Positions 27,377 to 34,767 of a DNA stretch of 64,000 nt are shown here, piece by piece. Source of the DNA: Desulforamulus ferrireducens. Its GTDB lineage: Bacteria; Bacillota; Desulfotomaculia; Desulfotomaculales; Desulfotomaculaceae. Made by a program: the position numbers and the translations under genes. The notes beneath the pieces are model-generated. The model was given only the letters and a program-made list of their open reading frames with translations, ran no database searches and was not told the origin of the DNA. Numbering within the stretch: position 1 is the stretch's first letter; the number at the start of each line of letters is the position of its first letter. The stretch covers positions 1,054,001 to 1,118,000 of the forward strand of contig NZ_CP019698.1 in the NCBI RefSeq assembly GCF_002005145.1, in the 5' to 3' direction.

Positions 27377-27958
27377 ATGTTATTATATCGTGTACTCCGG
27401 GTGATTATCCGTTGGATATTACTCATCTGGCGTAGATGGGAAGTAATTGGTGTCAACCACTTGCCAGTCAAGGGCGGTGTGGTGGTGGTCAGTAACCACA
27501 GTAGCAACCTGGACCCGGTGGTGGTAGGTTGTGCCTTAACCAGACCTATTCACTTTATGGCTAAACAAGAATTATTCCAAATCCCCATTCTAGTTAACAT
27601 AATTAAATTACTACTGGCCTTTCCGGTAAATAGAGAAAAATCAGACCGTAATGCCATTCGTACCGCTTTGAAAATACTACAGGAAGGTGAGCTGGTGGGC
27701 ATCTTTCCGGAAGGAACCAGAAGTAAAACCGGGGAATTACAAAAGCCTCATATAGGGGCGGCAATGCTGGCAATTAAAGCTGATGTCCCTATTTTACCAG
27801 TGGCCCTGAAGGGTACCAGAGGCCTGTTTAATAAAGTAACTGTGGTGGTGGGAAAACCCATCTATATTCCCGAAATCTGGAGCAATCGTCCTGGCAAAGA
27901 GGAAATGGAGGCCCTTAGCGAACGGGTAATGAAAGAAATCGCGGCATTATTGAAGTAG
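27377..27958 (+). CDS. plsC: 1-acylglycerol-3-phosphate acyltransferase
   Basis: It makes phosphatidic acid from lysophosphatidate at the membrane. At 193 aa, it has the catalytic HX4D motif in SNHSSNLDPV (about 39-48) and the second motif FPEGTRSKTG (about 113-122). It starts 9 nt after cmk with TAGGAGGAGATC, and its stop codon adjoins the ispH-S1 gene; all three are probably co-transcribed. Together with plsY and gpsA (8 kb away) it covers the early phospholipid steps. Confidence 0.95.
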   Translation: MLLYRVLRVIIRWILLIWRRWEVIGVNHLPVKGGVVVVSNHSSNLDPVVVGCALTRPIHFMAKQELFQIPILVNIIKLLLAFPVNREKSDRNAIRTALKILQEGELVGIFPEGTRSKTGELQKPHIGAAMLAIKADVPILPVALKGTRGLFNKVTVVVGKPIYIPEIWSNRPGKEEMEALSERVMKEIAALLK

Positions 27959-27972
27959 TGGAGGGTGATTTT

Positions 27973-29991
27973 TTGCAAGTCAAGGTAGCCAACAAAGCAG
28001 GTTTTTGCTATGGTGTAAAAAGGGCCATTGATTTAGCCTTAACCCAGGCTAAAAAAGATGATGGTCCGGTCTATACCCTAGGTCCTCTGATCCATAACCC
28101 ACAAGTGGTCCAGGATTTGGCCCAGCGGGGAATTCAAGAAATAAACAGCCTTGATCATGTGCAAACTGGTACTGTAATTATTCGTTCCCACGGCGTGGGA
28201 CCTGACATATTAAAAAAAGCTGCGGAGAAGAATCTTAAAGTATTGGATGCAACCTGTCCCTTTGTGGCAAAAGCCCAGAAATATGCCCGGGAAATGGCGG
28301 AAGAGGGTCTTCCGGTGTTTATCCTGGGTGACCCTGGACATCCAGAGGTGCAAGGTATTTTGGGCTGGACCAATGGTAAGGGTATCGTGGTTGAAAGTGC
28401 TGATGAAATAAGTCGGGTGGAACATCCAAAGGTAGGAGTGGTGGCACAAACAACTCAGCCACTGGCTAACTACCAGAGATTGGTGGAAGCCCTTCAAGAA
28501 CAAGGAGTCCAAGTGGATGCCCGTAACACCATTTGTCATGCCACTGGGGAGCGCCAGCGAGCTGCGTTGGAGTTGGCTCAAGAGGTGGACGTGGTAGTGG
28601 TGGTAGGGGGAAAGACAAGTGCCAATACCAAAAAATTAGCCAAACTCTGTGAAGAGACCGGGACTCCCACCTACCATATAGAGTCTGCAGAGGAACTGCA
28701 ACAGGAATGGTTCAGGGATTGCCGGAAGGCTGGACTTACAGCGGGCGCTTCAACACCTGACGCAATTATAGAGGAGGTTAAAAGAAGGATGAACGAACTG
28801 GATCAAATGACCAATGGCGACGAGACAATGAACCAAGCAATGGAGGTAAAGTCCCCCAGAACCGGCGAACTGGTAAAGGGTGTTGTGGTTCAAGTGAGCA
28901 ATGATGAAGTGCTGGTGGATATTGGGGCAAAGTCGGAGGGTGTTATCCCCCGCAAAGAACTGGCCTTTTATGGTGTAGATAATCCCCAGGAAATAGTAAA
29001 ACTTGGGGATGAAATAGAGTGTGTGGTCATCAAGGCTGAGGATAACGAAGGTAAGATTCTCTTATCCAAAGTCCGGGCCGATGCTGAAAAGGCCTGGGAT
29101 AACTTGGAACAAGCTATGGAAAATGGCACCATCATTAAAGGCACTGTTCGTGAAGTTGTCAAGGGTGGCCTACTGGTTGATGTGGGAGTACGTGCCTTCA
29201 TGCCTGCTTCCCTGGTGGAAAGGGGTTATGTTGAGGACCTGTCCCAATATCTCAATCAGGAAGTAGAAGTAAAAATTATTGAAATGAGTAAGCCCCGTAA
29301 AAAAGTAGTTGTCTCCCGTAAGGTTGTTCTAGAAGAAGAAAGTGCTCGTAAACGCGAAGAACTGCTGACTACCTTGCAAGAGGGACAGGTGGTAAAGGGT
29401 ATTGTTCGTCGTTTAACCAATTTTGGTGCCTTTGTGGATCTAGGCGGCCTGGATGGTTTACTGCACATTTCTGAAATGAGCTGGCATCGGATTAACCATC
29501 CGCAGGAAGTTGTTAAAGTAGGCGATGAATTAGAAGTTGCTGTTCTCAAGGTGGATCGGGAAAACGAGAAGATTTCCCTTGGTCTTAAGCAGGTATTGCC
29601 CAACCCCTGGGATACCGTTGAAGAAAAATATCCCGTTGGTAGTATTTTCCCGGCCAAGGTTGTCCGCTTAGCGCCCTTTGGTGCCTTCGTTCAATTGGAA
29701 CCTGGCATTGAAGGCTTGGTACACATCTCCCACCTGGCTAACCACCATGTGGAAAAGCCCGAAGACGTGGTTAAAGAGGGAGAAGAAGTTAAGGTTAAGG
29801 TGCTCAGCATCGATAAAGCCGAAAAACGTATTCGCCTGTCCATCCGGGAAGCCAATAAAGAAGAACGTTCCCGTGAAGCCAGTGCCATTAAACAGGAAGA
29901 ACCGGCGGTGGAGCCGGAAACTTTACCAGCCCCGGAAGAAAAGATTACCTTGGGCGACATTGTTGGGGATCAGTTAAAGGAGATTGAGTAA
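27973..29991 (+). CDS. ispH: IspH (HMBPP reductase) fused to ribosomal protein S1
   Basis: The first ~285 residues are IspH, the last enzyme of the MEP isoprenoid pathway, with the [4Fe-4S] cysteines in AGFCYGV (C12), DATCPFV (about 95) and NTICHA. Residues about 300-640 hold four S1 RNA-binding repeats (KGVVVQVSNDEVLVDIG, KGTVREVVKGGLLVDVG, KGIVRRLTNFGAFVDLG, PAKVVRLAPFGAFVQLE). An acidic tail ends the protein. This fusion is known in clostridia; how the two halves cooperate is unclear. I chose TTG at 27973, preceded by GGAGGGTGA; GTG at 27958 overlaps that site. Total 672 aa. Confidence 0.96.
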   Translation: MQVKVANKAGFCYGVKRAIDLALTQAKKDDGPVYTLGPLIHNPQVVQDLAQRGIQEINSLDHVQTGTVIIRSHGVGPDILKKAAEKNLKVLDATCPFVAKAQKYAREMAEEGLPVFILGDPGHPEVQGILGWTNGKGIVVESADEISRVEHPKVGVVAQTTQPLANYQRLVEALQEQGVQVDARNTICHATGERQRAALELAQEVDVVVVVGGKTSANTKKLAKLCEETGTPTYHIESAEELQQEWFRDCRKAGLTAGASTPDAIIEEVKRRMNELDQMTNGDETMNQAMEVKSPRTGELVKGVVVQVSNDEVLVDIGAKSEGVIPRKELAFYGVDNPQEIVKLGDEIECVVIKAEDNEGKILLSKVRADAEKAWDNLEQAMENGTIIKGTVREVVKGGLLVDVGVRAFMPASLVERGYVEDLSQYLNQEVEVKIIEMSKPRKKVVVSRKVVLEEESARKREELLTTLQEGQVVKGIVRRLTNFGAFVDLGGLDGLLHISEMSWHRINHPQEVVKVGDELEVAVLKVDRENEKISLGLKQVLPNPWDTVEEKYPVGSIFPAKVVRLAPFGAFVQLEPGIEGLVHISHLANHHVEKPEDVVKEGEEVKVKVLSIDKAEKRIRLSIREANKEERSREASAIKQEEPAVEPETLPAPEEKITLGDIVGDQLKEIE

Positions 29992-30012: not shown

Positions 30013-30049
30013 AAAACGACTGTCTTGAGAGGCAGTCGTTTTTTTTTCA
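30013..30049 (+). terminator. Rho-independent terminator after ispH-S1
   Basis: AAAACGACTG (30013-30022) pairs with CAGTCGTTTT (30033-30042), followed by a long T-run. Confidence 0.92.
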
Positions 30050-30079: not shown

Positions 30080-30170
30080 CCGGAGGAATGCCATAAGCTT
30101 GCATATTTTGACCAGCAGAGGGAAATCTATTTTTTAGATATCTACTTTGAATACACAAGGGGGCAAGTTT

Positions 30171-30944
30171 ATGGATCGTTTTCCACTGGGACTTATTGTC
30201 TTAATTGTCGTATCCCTACTAATTTTCTTTGGTGTAGCCCAAAGGGCTTTGGATCGGATGAGACTGTCAGACAAAGGGGCCCTGGCGGTAATACTGGCTA
30301 TTATTGTCGGTAGTTTTATTGATATTCCCATTCCAGGCATGAGGGTTCCTTTGGAAATTAACCTTGGCGGGGCGCTGGTACCGGTAGCCTTGGCCATTTA
30401 CCTGCTAGCCAAAGCTGGTACCGGTAAGGAGGTAACCAGGGCGCTACTATCTTCCTTAGTAACCTTTGGCGTGATCTGGTTTTTAAGTACCCGAGTAATG
30501 ACAGGTATCACTGAGCCGGCGGGTGGCTTAAATTTTATCGATGCTCTTTATGTCTTTCCCATTGTTGCTGCCATTATTGCCTATGTTGCCGGACGTTCCC
30601 GAAGAAGCGCCTTCATTGGTGCCACCCTGGGGGTTATTTTGTGGGATGTGGCTAACTATATTTACTTTCTCCAAAATAACGCCACCAATGCTGTGAAGAG
30701 TATCGGGGGAGCCGGTGCCTTTGATACCATCGTCATTTCCGGCATTTTGGCGGTTCTCCTGGCGGACTTAATTGGGGAAACCCGGGAGAGACTACAGGGT
30801 GGCCCGGTCTCTGAAGGTAAACCCGATGCTTTGTTAGCCGGTTTAAGGAAACCAGAGTTTGATCAAAAGGTGAGCAAGAAAACCGAAGAACCAGATAAGC
30901 ATGCCAGTGAGACAAGGAAGGAGGGTGACCGCCTTGAAGACTAA
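30171..30944 (+). CDS. DUF1614 membrane protein
   Basis: I place the start at the ATG at 30171, which follows AAGGGGGCAAGTTT; an in-frame ATG-like codon at 30147 has no site. The 257-aa protein has about six hydrophobic helices (residues 3-25, 35-52, 62-80, 90-105, 120-145, 150-175 and 185-205), the conserved segment GSFIDIPIP (about 44-52), and a hydrophilic, charged C-terminal tail from about 210. DUF1614 proteins have no known activity. Its last codons overlap the start of spoIIP, so they are translated together, which suggests a sporulation link. Confidence 0.85.
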   Translation: MDRFPLGLIVLIVVSLLIFFGVAQRALDRMRLSDKGALAVILAIIVGSFIDIPIPGMRVPLEINLGGALVPVALAIYLLAKAGTGKEVTRALLSSLVTFGVIWFLSTRVMTGITEPAGGLNFIDALYVFPIVAAIIAYVAGRSRRSAFIGATLGVILWDVANYIYFLQNNATNAVKSIGGAGAFDTIVISGILAVLLADLIGETRERLQGGPVSEGKPDALLAGLRKPEFDQKVSKKTEEPDKHASETRKEGDRLED

Positions 30945-32229
30945 AAGGTTCACGATAGTTCTCAGCATTTGTCTAATGTTAGTGGGAATCGGTGTCATCA
31001 CACAGTTAACAACTGCCGATTCGGTACGCCCGGCTTGGAATCCGGCATCCATATTATCCGGTCAAGGTTTAGAACACCAGGTGGGTGAGGCCATCAAGAT
31101 TGTTGATAACAAAGGAAATGTTATCAGCCAGGCTTGTCAGGGTGTTTCCGTGGGTGATGAGATTATCAGTGCGGATGGTAAACACTACCGCATTGTCAAA
31201 CTGAATAAAGATCGAGCCATTGTAAAATCTCTGGGTATGGACAAGGAATTCCTGGCCTGGAACGAATACTTTACCGATGAACGCCTGGCCATGGCAGCGG
31301 CAACTAAAAAAACCGGTAAGGTGGGTATTTATCATACACATTCCGATGAATCTTATGTACCTTCCGATGGCAGTGAGAGCAAACCCTTCAAGGGGGGGAT
31401 TTATGATGTAGGTCAATCCCTGTCAACACGGCTACAAGAAAAATCAGGCACTGAGGTTCTCTATGATAAAACCCCCCACGACCCCCATGATAATGCTGCC
31501 TATCAAAGGTCGCGGCGTACTGCCACTAAGTTAATGAAGGAAAACCCCATTGCCTTAATCGATGTCCACCGGGATGGTATACCGGACCCAGATTATTATT
31601 CAGCCAAAGTATCCGATACCAATGTAAGTAAATTAAGACTGGTAGTGGGGAGACAAAACCCCAATATGCAGGCCAACCTGAGTTTTGCCAAAAAAATGAT
31701 GGCTTATGCCAACAAGGTGCATCCAGGTATTGTCAAAGAAATCTTTATGGCCAAGGGTAATTATAACCAGGATTTAATGCCCACAGCCCTCTTAATTGAA
31801 GCCGGTACCCATACCAATACCAAAGGACAGGCCGAAAGAGGCGTTGCCCTGTTTGCCGATGCCATACCTATTGTGCTGGGCATTGAAGGGGGACCTGCGG
31901 AAGCCCAGGGTAAAACCGGCTTTAAAGGTATCACAGACAGAGGAGCTACTGCTGAAAATAGCGGCGGTTGGAAGGCAGTGGGCTGGATCTTAGGTTTAAC
32001 CCTCCTGTTAGGTGGTGGTTTCCTGTTAATCAGTACCGGTAGCCTAAAGGGTGTGGGTGAACGCATTGGTGCCTTTGGTAAGGAATTTAGTAATTACCTG
32101 GGACCTCTCAAGAAAAGGATGCAGGGCAAGAAAAGAGCCACCAAAGACACATCCGAGACCACTAAAGCCAGTTATGACCAAGCAGATCGTGCTGTTATTG
32201 ACCATAGGGATGACGTAACAGAAGATTAA
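30934..32229 (+). CDS. spoIIP: Stage II sporulation protein P
   Basis: A cell-wall amidase/endopeptidase that acts in engulfment with SpoIID and SpoIIM. I chose TTG at 30934 because GGAGGGTGACC lies before it. The 431-aa protein has an N-terminal membrane segment (about 6-27) and the amidase domain with VGIYHTHSDESYVPS (about 128-142), HDPHDNAAYQRSR, IDVHRDGIP (about 210-218) and LLIEAGTHTNT. A second hydrophobic stretch (about 350-372) with a basic tail follows the catalytic part, which is unusual for the best known SpoIIP and could be a second anchor. No spoIID or spoIIM is in the window. Confidence 0.93.
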   Translation: MKTKRFTIVLSICLMLVGIGVITQLTTADSVRPAWNPASILSGQGLEHQVGEAIKIVDNKGNVISQACQGVSVGDEIISADGKHYRIVKLNKDRAIVKSLGMDKEFLAWNEYFTDERLAMAAATKKTGKVGIYHTHSDESYVPSDGSESKPFKGGIYDVGQSLSTRLQEKSGTEVLYDKTPHDPHDNAAYQRSRRTATKLMKENPIALIDVHRDGIPDPDYYSAKVSDTNVSKLRLVVGRQNPNMQANLSFAKKMMAYANKVHPGIVKEIFMAKGNYNQDLMPTALLIEAGTHTNTKGQAERGVALFADAIPIVLGIEGGPAEAQGKTGFKGITDRGATAENSGGWKAVGWILGLTLLLGGGFLLISTGSLKGVGERIGAFGKEFSNYLGPLKKRMQGKKRATKDTSETTKASYDQADRAVIDHRDDVTED

Positions 32230-32232
32230 AAG

Positions 32233-32259
32233 TACTGCCGCCTTCTTAAGGCGGCAGTA
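32233..32259. terminator. 12-bp perfect hairpin without T-run
   Basis: TACTGCCGCCTT (32233-32244), loop CTT, AAGGCGGCAGTA (32248-32259). No T-tract follows on the plus strand (ATTGCGATATTC), so it may stabilise the mRNA 3' end or pause polymerase rather than terminate. The arm AAGGCGGCAGT also occurs in the terminator at 4887-4897. Confidence 0.5.
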
Positions 32260-32296
32260 TTGCGATATTCGGCTTGGCATGGCAAGGAGTGATTTA

Positions 32297-33187
32297 ATGG
32301 AACACTACCTGGCAGTCTCACTGGCAGGAATTGTAACTGGTTTCATCACACGTATAGTTTTGTTACGGGTGGATTACCGACAGTATCCCGGTTATCCCCA
32401 TGGTTTTGTTACCCATCTGTCCCTGGGGTTTATAGCTGCGGCCTTAGGTGCCATTGCAGTGCCTGCCTTATTAGAGCCAGACTATGCGGCCTTTACCTTC
32501 CTGGCCTTAGCCGCGCAACAATTCCGCGAAATTCGCAGCATGGAAAGACAAACTCTGGAGAGTCTAGAGGAAAGTGAATTGGTGCAGCGGGGTAAGGATT
32601 ATATCGAAGGCATTGCCCGAACCTTTGAGGCGAGAAATTTCCTGGTCATGGGAACTGCCTTTGTAACCTCTCTGATTACGGAATATCTAGGACTTTTGGC
32701 CGGTGGGGCGGCGGGTATTGTCTTGATTTTATTAAGCCTGTTATTAAAAAGTGGTAGCTCCATTGGCGACATTTGTGAGGTAGTGCCTGCCAAACTACAC
32801 TTCAAAGATACTATCCTCTATGTGGATCATATTAATATCATGTCTGTGGGTTTAAAGTCCACCCGGGAAAAGATTCTGGAACAGGGTCTGGGTGTTCTGA
32901 TTAAACCCAAAAATGATGATGCCAGAGCCACCATTCATGATATCGGTCAGAGGCTGGCCATTGCCCACACAGCGGCCACCATTTTAGGTACCAAAAAGGA
33001 TGTGGATTTACCGGAGTATACCCCCATGCTCAGAAAAGACCCGGATACCGGAGCAGTTGGATTTTATATTGTGCCCAACGAACCAGACATGGAGGCCCTA
33101 ATTGAGGCTGTCAAACAAGCTCCGGTGCTGGAAAGTGCAGCATCCCGACCTCTTAAATCCAGAGCCGGCCGTTATGCTGCGGATTAA
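32297..33187 (+). CDS. YIEGIA family membrane protein
   Basis: The 296-aa protein begins at ATG 32297 after AAGGAGTGATTTA. It carries the family's name motif YIEGIA at residues 102-107, preceded by hydrophobic helices (about 3-22, 40-75) and followed by another pair (about 112-155). The C-terminal half is soluble with a possible regulatory fold. The family is common in endospore-forming Firmicutes, of unknown function. The following 60-aa gene is its usual small partner. I infer a complex of the two, probably in sporulation, from spoIIP upstream. Confidence 0.88.
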   Translation: MEHYLAVSLAGIVTGFITRIVLLRVDYRQYPGYPHGFVTHLSLGFIAAALGAIAVPALLEPDYAAFTFLALAAQQFREIRSMERQTLESLEESELVQRGKDYIEGIARTFEARNFLVMGTAFVTSLITEYLGLLAGGAAGIVLILLSLLLKSGSSIGDICEVVPAKLHFKDTILYVDHINIMSVGLKSTREKILEQGLGVLIKPKNDDARATIHDIGQRLAIAHTAATILGTKKDVDLPEYTPMLRKDPDTGAVGFYIVPNEPDMEALIEAVKQAPVLESAASRPLKSRAGRYAAD

Positions 33188-33211
33188 CTCCTAAAAGGAA
33201 GGCGGACAATC

Positions 33212-33394
33212 TTGTCAAAAGGTACTATTGTGGCAGCGGTAACGCTCAACACCGATTACATAACAGGGGATCTGCCCATTATTATCGCCAGGGATGAGGA
33301 AGAACAGGAGAAACTGGCCCGTCATATCGCTAACATTCTACAAAGCACCATTCATGATTTAGGTAACGGAACCTTTTTGATAGTGCAACACTAA
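33212..33394 (+). CDS. Small partner protein of YIEGIA protein (capping-complex subunit type)
   Basis: At 60 aa it is soluble, with hydrophobic strands VAAVTLN and PIIIAR and the ending HDLGNGTFLIVQH. It is the small protein typically encoded next to YIEGIA genes and named a capping-complex subunit in databases as I recall; the biochemistry is unknown. It starts with TTG after AAAAGGAAGGCGG, 24 nt downstream of its partner, so the two are probably made together. Confidence 0.78.
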   Translation: MSKGTIVAAVTLNTDYITGDLPIIIARDEEEQEKLARHIANILQSTIHDLGNGTFLIVQH

Positions 33395-33456
33395 TCCTTG
33401 ACTAAGATTGGCAAATGGTGGATAATTTATGAAGTACGTCCACGGGGAGATATTAC

Positions 33457-34767
33457 ATGGCAGACAATGGATTATTAATAACTGGTGTAGAAGAACAAAG
33501 CATCGGTGAGGAACTGGGTCTTAAACCCGGTGATAAACTGGTGGCCATCAATAACCAGCCGGTAAGGGACATTTTGGATTACCGCTTTCTCTGTGCCGCC
33601 GAGGAACTGGTGGCCAGGGTGATTACCCAGACTGGCGAGGAATGGGAACTGGAAATTGAGAAGGAGTACGAGGAAGACCTGGGGTTAGATTTTGGCGAGC
33701 ATTCCTTTGGGCCAACCAGGCGGTGCCACAATCGCTGCCTCTTTTGCTTTGTGGACCAAATGGCGCCCAAGATGCGAGAAACCCTTTATATTAAAGACGA
33801 TGACTATCGTCTTTCTTTTTGGCAAGGTAACTTTGTTACCCTTACCAATGTAAAGGAGGCCGAACTACAAAGAATTATTGAGCAGAGATTGGGGCCACTT
33901 TATATTTCCGTTCATACCACCAATCCAGAATTACGTGTGCGAATGCTGAATAATCGTTTTGCCGGTAAAATTATGGAGCAGCTAAAGGCACTGGCTCAGG
34001 CCGGCATTACCATGCATACCCAGGTGGTTTTATGTCCCGATATTAACGATGGACCAGAGCTAAAACGTACCATTGAAGATCTGGCGAGTTTATGGCCGGA
34101 GGTACAATCGATGGCTGTGGTGCCGGTGGGGGTTACCAAATATCGTGAGGGACTGTACAATTTAAGAACTTTCACACCGGAAGAAGCCGGGCAAGTTATT
34201 GAACTGGTAGAAAGCTACCAGGAGGAATTTATGGAACGCTATGATTACCCCTTTGTCTTTGCTTCGGACGAATTTTATGTTATGGCAGGAAAAACAATTC
34301 CAGCCACCGAAAAATATGGTGATTTTCCTCAAACTGAAAACGGTGTGGGGTTAGCCAGGTTATTTTTAGACCAGTGGGAGGCAGTTAAGGATGAGCTGCC
34401 CGAGAGCCTGCCCTTTAACCGCATTGTGACTTTGGTGACTGGCACCTCCGGTGCAGCCATCCTGCAGCAGGTGGTGGACAGACTTAACCAAATAAAAGGC
34501 TTACAGGTTCACCTGGCAGTGGTGAAGAATCACTTCTTTGGTGAAACTGTGACCGTGACCGGACTTTTAACCGCCAGTGATATTATTAATGCCCTCAAGG
34601 ATAAAAACCTGGGAGATGCCTTAATCTTGCCTTCTGTGATGCTGCGTGAGGGGGAAGAAGTGTTTCTGGACGATCTAACTGTTTCCGATGTGGCCAAGCA
34701 ACTCCAGGTCAAGGTGGAAGTGGTGGATGGTCCTATAGATTTGGTAGAAGTGGTACTAGGGGACTAA
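33457..34767 (+). CDS. DUF512 protein with PDZ and radical-SAM-like cysteine motif
   Basis: The 436-aa protein has an N-terminal PDZ-like domain (about 5-75, GLKPGDKLVAINNQPV) and a cysteine motif C90xxxC94xxC97 (RRCHNRCLFCF), which is the radical-SAM 4Fe-4S signature. The rest matches DUF512 (about 225-425). Members occur in most anaerobic Firmicutes and are thought to bind an iron-sulfur cluster; the reaction is unknown. It follows the YIEGIA pair and precedes der, so it may connect them with ribosome-related functions, but this is only context. Confidence 0.9.
   Translation: MADNGLLITGVEEQSIGEELGLKPGDKLVAINNQPVRDILDYRFLCAAEELVARVITQTGEEWELEIEKEYEEDLGLDFGEHSFGPTRRCHNRCLFCFVDQMAPKMRETLYIKDDDYRLSFWQGNFVTLTNVKEAELQRIIEQRLGPLYISVHTTNPELRVRMLNNRFAGKIMEQLKALAQAGITMHTQVVLCPDINDGPELKRTIEDLASLWPEVQSMAVVPVGVTKYREGLYNLRTFTPEEAGQVIELVESYQEEFMERYDYPFVFASDEFYVMAGKTIPATEKYGDFPQTENGVGLARLFLDQWEAVKDELPESLPFNRIVTLVTGTSGAAILQQVVDRLNQIKGLQVHLAVVKNHFFGETVTVTGLLTASDIINALKDKNLGDALILPSVMLREGEEVFLDDLTVSDVAKQLQVKVEVVDGPIDLVEVVLGD

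What the first reader, a model, noticed from the sequence alone, without database searches (positions are those of the whole stretch)
30171..34767. Uncharacterised spoIIP-linked module: DUF1614, YIEGIA, its 60-aa partner, and DUF512/PDZ radical-SAM-like protein
Four proteins without known activity are encoded in a row around spoIIP, with the DUF1614-spoIIP coding overlap pointing to joint translation. YIEGIA proteins occur in spore formers and have a dedicated small partner here. The DUF512 protein has a PDZ domain and C90xxxC94xxC97. The set could be one membrane-associated system of the developing spore.
Basis: partly seen in the sequence, partly recalled or inferred. Interest (0 to 1): 0.55.

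Follow-up and report, generated by a model that had tools for sequence, protein, structure and literature searches.

The report
Forespore locus with second SpoIIP amidase
This spore-forming bacterium carries a conserved set of membrane-protein genes, including a second, differently anchored copy of a wall-cutting sporulation enzyme, that looks switched on inside the developing spore; the radical-SAM gene at the end is a separate, already partly characterised enzyme.

Summary
The genes are as described, but they make two units. Unit 1 is DUF1614, SpoIIP, YIEGIA and the 60-aa protein (Pfam YIEGIA_cap). Its SpoIIP belongs to an ancient second clade (support 100/99) with catalytic residues intact and a C-terminal membrane segment in 65 of 65 locus copies, 0 of 21 others. 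DUF1614 tracks it: 140 of 144 genomes with two or more SpoIIP matches, 4 of 31 with one. Their frames overlap in 52 of 60 loci. A forespore-type promoter precedes DUF1614 in 32 of 60 loci, 0.9 in shuffles. YIEGIA and cap occur in exactly the same 92 of 199 genomes. DUF1614 is homologous to YphA. Unit 2, DUF512, has its own sigma-A-type promoter, occurs in 13 of 26 SpoIVA-less genomes, and is a structurally known cobalamin radical-SAM family (PMC11659888). The DUF1614-SpoIIP-YIEGIA neighbourhood was reported in 2015 (PMC5898192); the SpoIIP split, promoter and pairing were not found in the papers searched. Best reading: a forespore membrane unit with its own doubly anchored SpoIIP. Activity, side and binding are inferred.

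The parts
30013..30042 (+). intrinsic-terminator-like hairpin with T run that closes the cmk-plsC-ispH-rpsA side
   Evidence: 13 pairs, loop 4, T-rich tail
30101..30129 (+). forespore (sigma-F type) promoter-like site GCATA-N14-GGGAAATCTA before DUF1614
   Evidence: block GYATA-N14-GGG in 8 of 8 Desulforamulus genomes; pattern in 32 of 60 loci, shuffled mean 0.9 and maximum 4, reversed 0. Sigma-F consensus recalled
30171..30944 (+). DUF1614 membrane protein, 257 aa, homologous to B. subtilis YphA
   Evidence: PF07758 6.4e-16; hhalign to YphA alignment 98.9%, E 3.8e-17; model pLDDT 84.3
30934..32229 (+). second-clade SpoIIP, TTG start, 431 aa; N-terminal TM, amidase domain, C-terminal TM (about 31975-32031), positive tail
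   Evidence: PF07454 5.9e-61; TIGR02867 over its cut-off; tree; TM
32233..32259 (.). 12-pair hairpin between spoIIP and YIEGIA; similar hairpins at this place in some genus members
32297..33187 (+). YIEGIA, 296 aa, five long helices then an alpha/beta domain (reading frame open from 32279)
   Evidence: PF14045 9.4e-125; model pLDDT 90.7, pTM 0.85
33212..33394 (+). YIEGIA_cap, 60 aa, TTG start
   Evidence: PF21835 2.6e-20; same 92 of 199 genomes as YIEGIA
33398..33426 (+). sigma-A-type promoter-like site TTGACT-N17-GATAAT before DUF512
   Evidence: 10 of 12; equivalent site in 8 of 8 genus members
33457..34767 (+). PDZ - radical SAM - DUF512 (cobalamin-binding) protein, a separate unit
   Evidence: 9cg1 E 7.7e-129

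Best explanation
The finding spans two units. Unit 1 (DUF1614, second-clade SpoIIP, YIEGIA, cap) is an ancient forespore transcription unit of spore-forming Bacillota, read by sigma-F-type RNA polymerase. DUF1614 and SpoIIP are translated in a coupled way and form a membrane complex in which SpoIIP, anchored at both ends, cuts peptidoglycan between the two membranes while DUF1614 holds or gates it, much as SpoIIM holds canonical SpoIIP in the DMP engulfment machine; it would be a forespore-side counterpart of the canonical SpoIIP. YIEGIA is a five-helix protein of the forespore (later spore inner) membrane whose alpha/beta domain faces the core and works with the small cap protein. Unit 2, DUF512, is a housekeeping cobalamin-dependent radical-SAM enzyme of unknown substrate. 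Shown here: gene order, clade, catalytic residues, C-terminal TM, overlap, promoter motif, pairing, separation of DUF512. Inferred: enzyme activity, side of the membrane, complexes, timing.
For: Second SpoIIP clade 66 rows, 100/99; H136, E139, H212, E289 invariant on both sides; C-terminal TM 65 of 65 locus copies, 0 of 21 others; DUF1614 in 140 of 144 genomes with two or more SpoIIP matches, 4 of 31 with one, 2 of 24 with none; frames overlap in 52 of 60 loci; promoter 32 of 60 against 0.9 shuffled, but 2 of 60 before DUF512, 1 of 62 before YIEGIA and 0 of 21 before the other spoIIP genes; YIEGIA and cap in the same 92 of 199 genomes and both doubled in G079, G119, G154, G187; co-divergence; sigma-A-type site before DUF512 8 of 8. 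Papers (passages): B. subtilis YphB sigma-F regulated (PMC12017682); a YIEGIA protein in the B. cereus spore inner membrane (PMC8624511).
Against: The full motif is not before spoIIR (1 of 8) or gpr (0 of 8) of the genus, nor above chance before Bacilli yphA (2 of 28); only the -35 half GYATA is (8 of 8, 7 of 8). 28 of 60 loci lack the pattern. A scan of the own genome with the pattern brought up no forespore gene that I recognised. In C. difficile the likely homologous operon is marked 'sigma-G?' and not sigma-F (PMC3789822, passage). YphB is described as not essential (PMC12017682). Half of the SpoIVA-positive genomes lack YIEGIA (82 of 173). DUF1614 counts include a second subfamily elsewhere in some genomes. 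No complex was modelled.
Confidence: 0.5

Rival explanations
1. Neighbours by old synteny: the second SpoIIP with DUF1614 is one unit (a back-up amidase), YIEGIA-cap is another with an unrelated role, and they stay together because the rpsA-der region is conserved as a whole.
For: The region around is conserved too (cmk, rpsA, der, gpsA, spoIVA). YIEGIA-cap is missing while DUF1614-SpoIIP stays in 11 loci chosen for that (L172-L182), and occurs without DUF1614 in 6 of 92 genomes and as a lone pair in L147, L151, L155, L157.
Against: Co-divergence of SpoIIP and YIEGIA is the highest of all pairs (0.67 partial); short junctions between them in many loci and one shared upstream promoter; YIEGIA has no motif of its own.
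Confidence: 0.3
2. The unit acts late, not in engulfment: forespore SpoIIP trims the germ-cell wall or cortex side, or works in germination, with YIEGIA-cap as an inner-membrane sensor or transporter.
For: YIEGIA proteins found in spores (PMC8624511, passage); C. difficile authors suggest a germination role for membrane proteins such as CD2635 and CD2636 (PMC3789822, passage); in L171 the unit lies directly before a gerA gene (PF03323 7.1e-176).
Against: Promoter type is the early forespore kind by recalled consensus; the gerA neighbour was seen in one locus only; SpoIIP is known from engulfment.
Confidence: 0.16
3. One reading: all four families including DUF512 are one spore system, for example DUF512 modifying the C-terminus of YIEGIA or cap through its PDZ domain.
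For: Adjacency in many genomes; PDZ domains bind C-termini (PMC11659888, passage); cap ends in His in 49 of 61 members.
Against: Own sigma-A-type promoter; DUF512 in 13 of 26 SpoIVA-negative genomes and in non-sporulating controls; the cap C-terminus is kept where DUF512 is absent (L171; G092 has no DUF512 match); DUF3189 genes lie between cap and DUF512 in many loci; C. difficile DUF512 listed as essential (PMC12548448).
Confidence: 0.04

Closest known systems
DMP engulfment machine (SpoIID-SpoIIM-SpoIIP) with canonical LepA-linked SpoIIP
   Same: Same amidase family and the same invariant catalytic residues; activity of SpoIIP and need of two His shown in C. difficile (PMC6221140, passages)
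   Different: Separate clade, C-terminal membrane segment, DUF1614 partner with overlapping frames, different upstream motif
DUF1614 (arCOG02159)-SpoIIP-yphB neighbourhood of Makarova and colleagues 2015 (PMC5898192, section 3.7 read)
   Same: Same three families together; they already suggest a membrane-remodelling complex
   Different: They do not separate the second SpoIIP clade, and name no cap, promoter, overlap or YphA kinship in that section
YphA-YphB of Bacillus subtilis
   Same: DUF1614 is homologous to YphA, YphB is YIEGIA; YphA and YIEGIA are side by side in 31 of 34 YphA-positive genomes; B. subtilis rings for cap too
   Different: No SpoIIP in between (L153); motif before yphA at chance level
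C. difficile operon CD2636-CD2634 (PMC3789822, passages)
   Same: Two membrane proteins and a small hypothetical protein in one forespore-controlled operon near spoIVA; two of the three found in spores
   Different: Identity inferred from order and gene numbers only; sigma-G with a question mark in their table
Two spoIIP genes of B. anthracis, read by sigma-F and sigma-E (stated in PMC3789822, passage)
   Same: Idea of a forespore and a mother-cell SpoIIP
   Different: Not compared by sequence here
csDUF512 of Clostridium sporogenes, 9cg1 (PMC11659888)
   Same: Same three domains, E 7.7e-129 over almost the whole length
   Different: No relevant difference seen; substrate unknown in both

Membership tests
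SpoIIP (PF07454 / TIGR02867) | score over the curated cut-off | tested here: met
   PF07454 206.8 against 24.4 bits; TIGR02867 179.9 against 123.15
SpoIIP (PF07454 / TIGR02867) | conserved His and Glu of the amidase site | tested here: met
   H136, E139, H212, E289 invariant in 65 locus and 21 other rows
SpoIIP (PF07454 / TIGR02867) | peptidoglycan amidase/endopeptidase activity | not testable with these tools
   needs protein
canonical DMP SpoIIP | same clade as the LepA-linked SpoIIP | tested here: not met
   separate side of a 100/99 branch
canonical DMP SpoIIP | complex with SpoIID and SpoIIM | not testable with these tools
   no complex prediction on hand
DUF1614 (PF07758) | score over the curated cut-off | tested here: met
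   59.2 against 23.9 bits
YphA (PF24124) | score over the curated cut-off | tested here: not met
   18.8 against 28 bits; but 49 of 60 relatives match at E up to 1, best 2.7e-10, and the profiles align at 98.9%, E 3.8e-17: homologous, not filed as YphA
YIEGIA (PF14045) | score over the curated cut-off | tested here: met
   415.6 against 27 bits
YIEGIA_cap (PF21835) | score over the curated cut-off | tested here: met
   72.3 against 24.1 bits
YIEGIA_cap (PF21835) | physical binding to YIEGIA | not testable with these tools
   co-occurrence 92 of 92 only
sigma-F regulon | GYWTA and GG-containing -10 box (recalled consensus) upstream | tested here: met
   window 30101-30129; 32 of 60 loci
sigma-F regulon | same full motif at known forespore genes of the genus | tested here: inconclusive
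   spoIIR 1 of 8, gpr 0 of 8; only GYATA shared, 8 of 8 and 7 of 8
Cobalamin radical-SAM DUF512 proteins | CxxxCxxC, radical SAM and DUF512 domains | tested here: met
Cobalamin radical-SAM DUF512 proteins | binds cobalamin and a 4Fe-4S cluster | not testable with these tools
   shown for four relatives in PMC11659888 (Results, part read)
TIGR03279 (cyanobacterial equivalog) | score over the curated cut-off | tested here: not met
   500.6 against 574.7 bits

The most novel reading that the evidence does not exclude
Most spore-forming Bacillota outside Bacilli carry a second, forespore-made engulfment hydrolase: a doubly anchored SpoIIP with DUF1614 as its membrane partner, linked to a core-side YIEGIA-cap regulator. 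The textbook DMP machine would be only one half of an older two-sided apparatus, of which many Bacilli keep YphA, YIEGIA and cap.
Probability: 0.3. Interest if true: 0.72.

Novelty: new variant of a known kind. Interest (0 to 1): 0.5.

Why it matters
How wall and membrane are remodelled from the forespore side is open, and most work rests on Bacillus, where the second SpoIIP seems to be missing (the six genomes of the phylum sample that were also drawn in the class of G176, namely G062, G105, G143, G176, G205 and G229, have at most one SpoIIP match; but PMC3789822 mentions two spoIIP genes in B. anthracis). A second SpoIIP with its own membrane partner and a forespore-type promoter is a concrete, testable candidate; it ties the B. 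subtilis orphans yphA and yphB to a function, and gives YIEGIA an obligate small partner to look for.

Tried and rejected
DUF512 as a member of the spore system: rejected (own promoter, distribution, literature). Cap as a duplicated piece of YIEGIA: hhalign probability 0.4%, rejected. Known fold for YIEGIA: Foldseek 0 of 377 matches at E up to 0.001; the second look gave at best Z 6.7, rmsd 2.8, 93 aligned (9evf_B, on the C-terminal domain) and several MscS-type rows with rmsd over 20, too weak to use; an MscS-like channel was considered and dropped, without a test of its own. Known fold for DUF1614: 0 of 111; best rows are FtsX of FtsEX (Z 5.7, rmsd 4.4, 130 aligned), below the level that means kinship, told only as a lead. 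No solved relative by sequence for YIEGIA, cap or DUF1614, nor a significant one for SpoIIP.

The own-genome scan with the promoter pattern gave 29 sites against 15 for the reversed pattern; the genes behind them held no forespore gene that I recognised. Neighbours of the stand-alone YIEGIA-cap pairs gave no shared theme. Papers searched for terms and empty of them in the main text: PMC4703394 (yph, SeaA), PMC9600426 (yphA, yphB, seaA), PMC12700454 (yph, YIEGIA, ypz). That a second SpoIIP clade was not found in print rests and on passages of PMC7924749 and PMC3533761 only.

Rows dropped: L188 (frameshifted assembly) was left out of alignments A1-A3 and its two SpoIIP fragments out; a short DUF1614 frame of L164 was left out of A3; one search used 45 loci that hold all six families, without L188, L164 and L169. 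Starts were chosen by my own score for a ribosome site; in 8 of 60 loci no overlapping start was chosen. The label 'lepA' means 'not at this locus': of the 21 rows, 16 show a GTPase hit of the Der profile nearby and L163 holds LepA by its sequence; L199, L207, L209 and L211 show none, and L207 falls inside the locus clade although it lacks the C-terminal TM. The loci were chosen by hand.

Full report
What is there. Families: DUF1614, SpoIIP, YIEGIA, Pfam's 'capping complex subunit for YIEGIA', and a PDZ - radical SAM - DUF512 protein. The genus is probably Desulforamulus: the nearest named relatives in YIEGIA are D. aeronauticus (89%) and D. putei (88%). Upstream lie cmk, plsC and a fused ispH-rpsA; downstream der, plsY, gpsA and spoIVA. 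In 49 YIEGIA loci that I chose over the phylum, cap stands directly behind YIEGIA in 49, and DUF1614-SpoIIP-YIEGIA-cap is complete and in order in 37.

The SpoIIP of this locus is not the canonical one. The genome has two SpoIIP matches; the other lies beside LepA. In a tree of 86 SpoIIP rows, the 65 rows from this locus and one stray copy (L207) lie on one side of a branch with support 100/99, the other 20 on the other side. Both sides keep H136, E139, H212 and E289 without exception (window numbering from the TTG start), so both should be enzymes. All 65 locus copies have a C-terminal membrane segment and none of the 21 others has one, L207 included. The tails behind it are positive on average (+2.8), which suggests a tail inside the cell and the enzyme domain outside, anchored at both ends (inference).

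DUF1614 goes with this second SpoIIP. Of 199 genomes of the phylum, DUF1614 is in 140 of 144 with two or more SpoIIP matches, 4 of 31 with one, and 2 of 24 with none. The count includes a second DUF1614 subfamily elsewhere in some genomes, so the link is coarser than the number says. The coding overlap is old: in 52 of 60 loci the SpoIIP start that my score chose overlaps the DUF1614 stop by 1 to 47 nt. DUF1614 is homologous to YphA of Bacilli: hhalign 98.9%, E 3.8e-17. YphA has the same place: in 31 of 34 YphA-positive genomes of the class of G176 it lies directly before YIEGIA (coordinates).

Promoters split the finding in two. In eight Desulforamulus genomes an otherwise diverged upstream region keeps one block, GYATA-N14-GGG, 8 of 8. 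The pattern G[CT][AT]TA-N13-16-GGnnAnnnT stands within 160 nt before DUF1614 in 32 of 60 loci over the phylum; shuffled controls give 0.9 on average and 4 at most, reversed sequence 0; before DUF512 it is 2 of 60, before YIEGIA 1 of 62, before the other spoIIP genes 0 of 21. This is the B. subtilis sigma-F consensus as I recall it; PMC3789822 (passages seen) says that a G upstream of the -10 element marks sigma-F promoters in C. difficile, and that its sigma-F and sigma-G elements resemble those of B. subtilis. Against it: spoIIR and gpr of the same genus do not carry the full motif (1 of 8, 0 of 8), only its -35 half (8 of 8, 7 of 8); Bacilli yphA has it at chance level (2 of 28); and a scan of the own genome did not lead to forespore genes that I recognised. 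DUF512 instead has TTGAC[TG]-N17/18-GATAAT in 8 of 8 genus members.

YIEGIA and its cap. The two families occur in exactly the same 92 of 199 genomes and are both doubled in G079, G119, G154 and G187. YIEGIA is in 91 of 173 genomes with SpoIVA and 1 of 26 without (G116, a draft with two SpoIIP matches). The YIEGIA model is good (pLDDT 90.7, pTM 0.85): five long helices, then an alpha/beta domain. No close solved structure was found. Because 82 of 173 SpoIVA-positive genomes lack the pair, it is an accessory and not a core sporulation function.

DUF512 is a different matter. It is in 159 of 199 genomes, 13 of them among the 26 without SpoIVA, and in the controls Synechococcus elongatus and Deinobacterium chartae. 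A close homologue is solved (9cg1), and the family binds cobalamin and methylates it from SAM (PMC11659888: abstract, part of Results, and Conclusions read). In C. difficile it is listed as essential (PMC12548448, passages). Over 45 loci, with Der distances taken out, DUF1614-SpoIIP, DUF1614-YIEGIA and SpoIIP-YIEGIA co-diverge with 0.59, 0.58 and 0.67, and the three against DUF512 with 0.34 to 0.41; cap is too short to tell (0.34 to 0.36 with all).

Outside evidence for timing. B. [quoted passage not shown] A YIEGIA protein is among the spore inner membrane proteins of B. cereus (PMC8624511, passage). In C. difficile the operon CD2636-CD2634 (two membrane proteins and a hypothetical protein) is among forespore-controlled genes; the text says that CD2635 and CD2636 are down in the sigG mutant, the table gives two ratios per gene that I read as sigF and sigG, marks the promoter 'sigma-G?', and marks CD2635 and CD2634 as found in spores (PMC3789822, passages). 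The DUF512 gene is CDR20291_2521 and a response regulator is CDR20291_2526 (PMC12548448, passages); CD2637 is a sensor kinase (PMC3789822). If that response regulator is CD2638, CD2634 lies next to DUF512, in the place of cap. This equation rests on numbers and order and was not tested by sequence.

How it would work. The evidence supports an old forespore unit with an intact wall enzyme tied to one membrane partner, and a second obligate pair behind it. I think it most likely that SpoIIP and DUF1614 act together on the wall between the two membranes during or just after engulfment, from the forespore side, while canonical SpoIIP works in the DMP complex; YIEGIA-cap would sit in the same membrane and act on the core side. 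Side, timing, binding and activity are inferred.

What is known already. The neighbourhood DUF1614-SpoIIP-YIEGIA and the idea of a membrane-remodelling complex are in print (PMC5898192, section 3.7 read). Two spoIIP genes under sigma-F and sigma-E are reported for B. anthracis (stated in a passage of PMC3789822). I did not find the second clade, its C-terminal anchor, its overlap with DUF1614, the promoter, the YphA kinship or the YIEGIA-cap counts in the searches, which cover open-licence papers only.

Noticed in passing
between cap and DUF512 in other genomes, e.g. L131:6526-7450, L136:8726-9658, L189:6713-7683: Two tandem frames of about 155 aa lie there in 31 of 49 loci; six of them from three loci, tested, are all DUF3189. 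The window genus has none at this place.
   Followed up: partly
L171:6274-12202 (genome G092): SpoIIP-YIEGIA-cap stands directly before a gerA gene (PF03323 7.1e-176) followed by what look like gerB and gerC frames.
   Followed up: partly
L147, L151, L155, L157: Stand-alone second YIEGIA-cap pairs far from the locus, with caps that lost the inner and final His.
   Followed up: partly
L128:10508, L190:10596, L191:10572: One family (f3) has a further SpoIIP copy between rpsA and DUF1614, all within the locus clade.
   Followed up: no
phylum sample, e.g. L063-L090: A second DUF1614 subfamily (E near 1e-50, full-length match) lies elsewhere in some genomes and was not studied.
   Followed up: no
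window 33398-33457: Beyond the two promoter hexamers, nearly the whole stretch up to the DUF512 ribosome site is conserved in the genus, more than a promoter needs.
   Followed up: no
window 32233-32259: Hairpin between spoIIP and YIEGIA, similar in several genus members; might attenuate or end transcription between the two.
   Followed up: no
L188 (genome G008): Many genes of the locus are split by frameshifts in this assembly, probably sequencing errors.
   Followed up: no
window 27958-29991: ispH and ribosomal protein S1 (rpsA) form one 677-aa reading frame.
   Followed up: no
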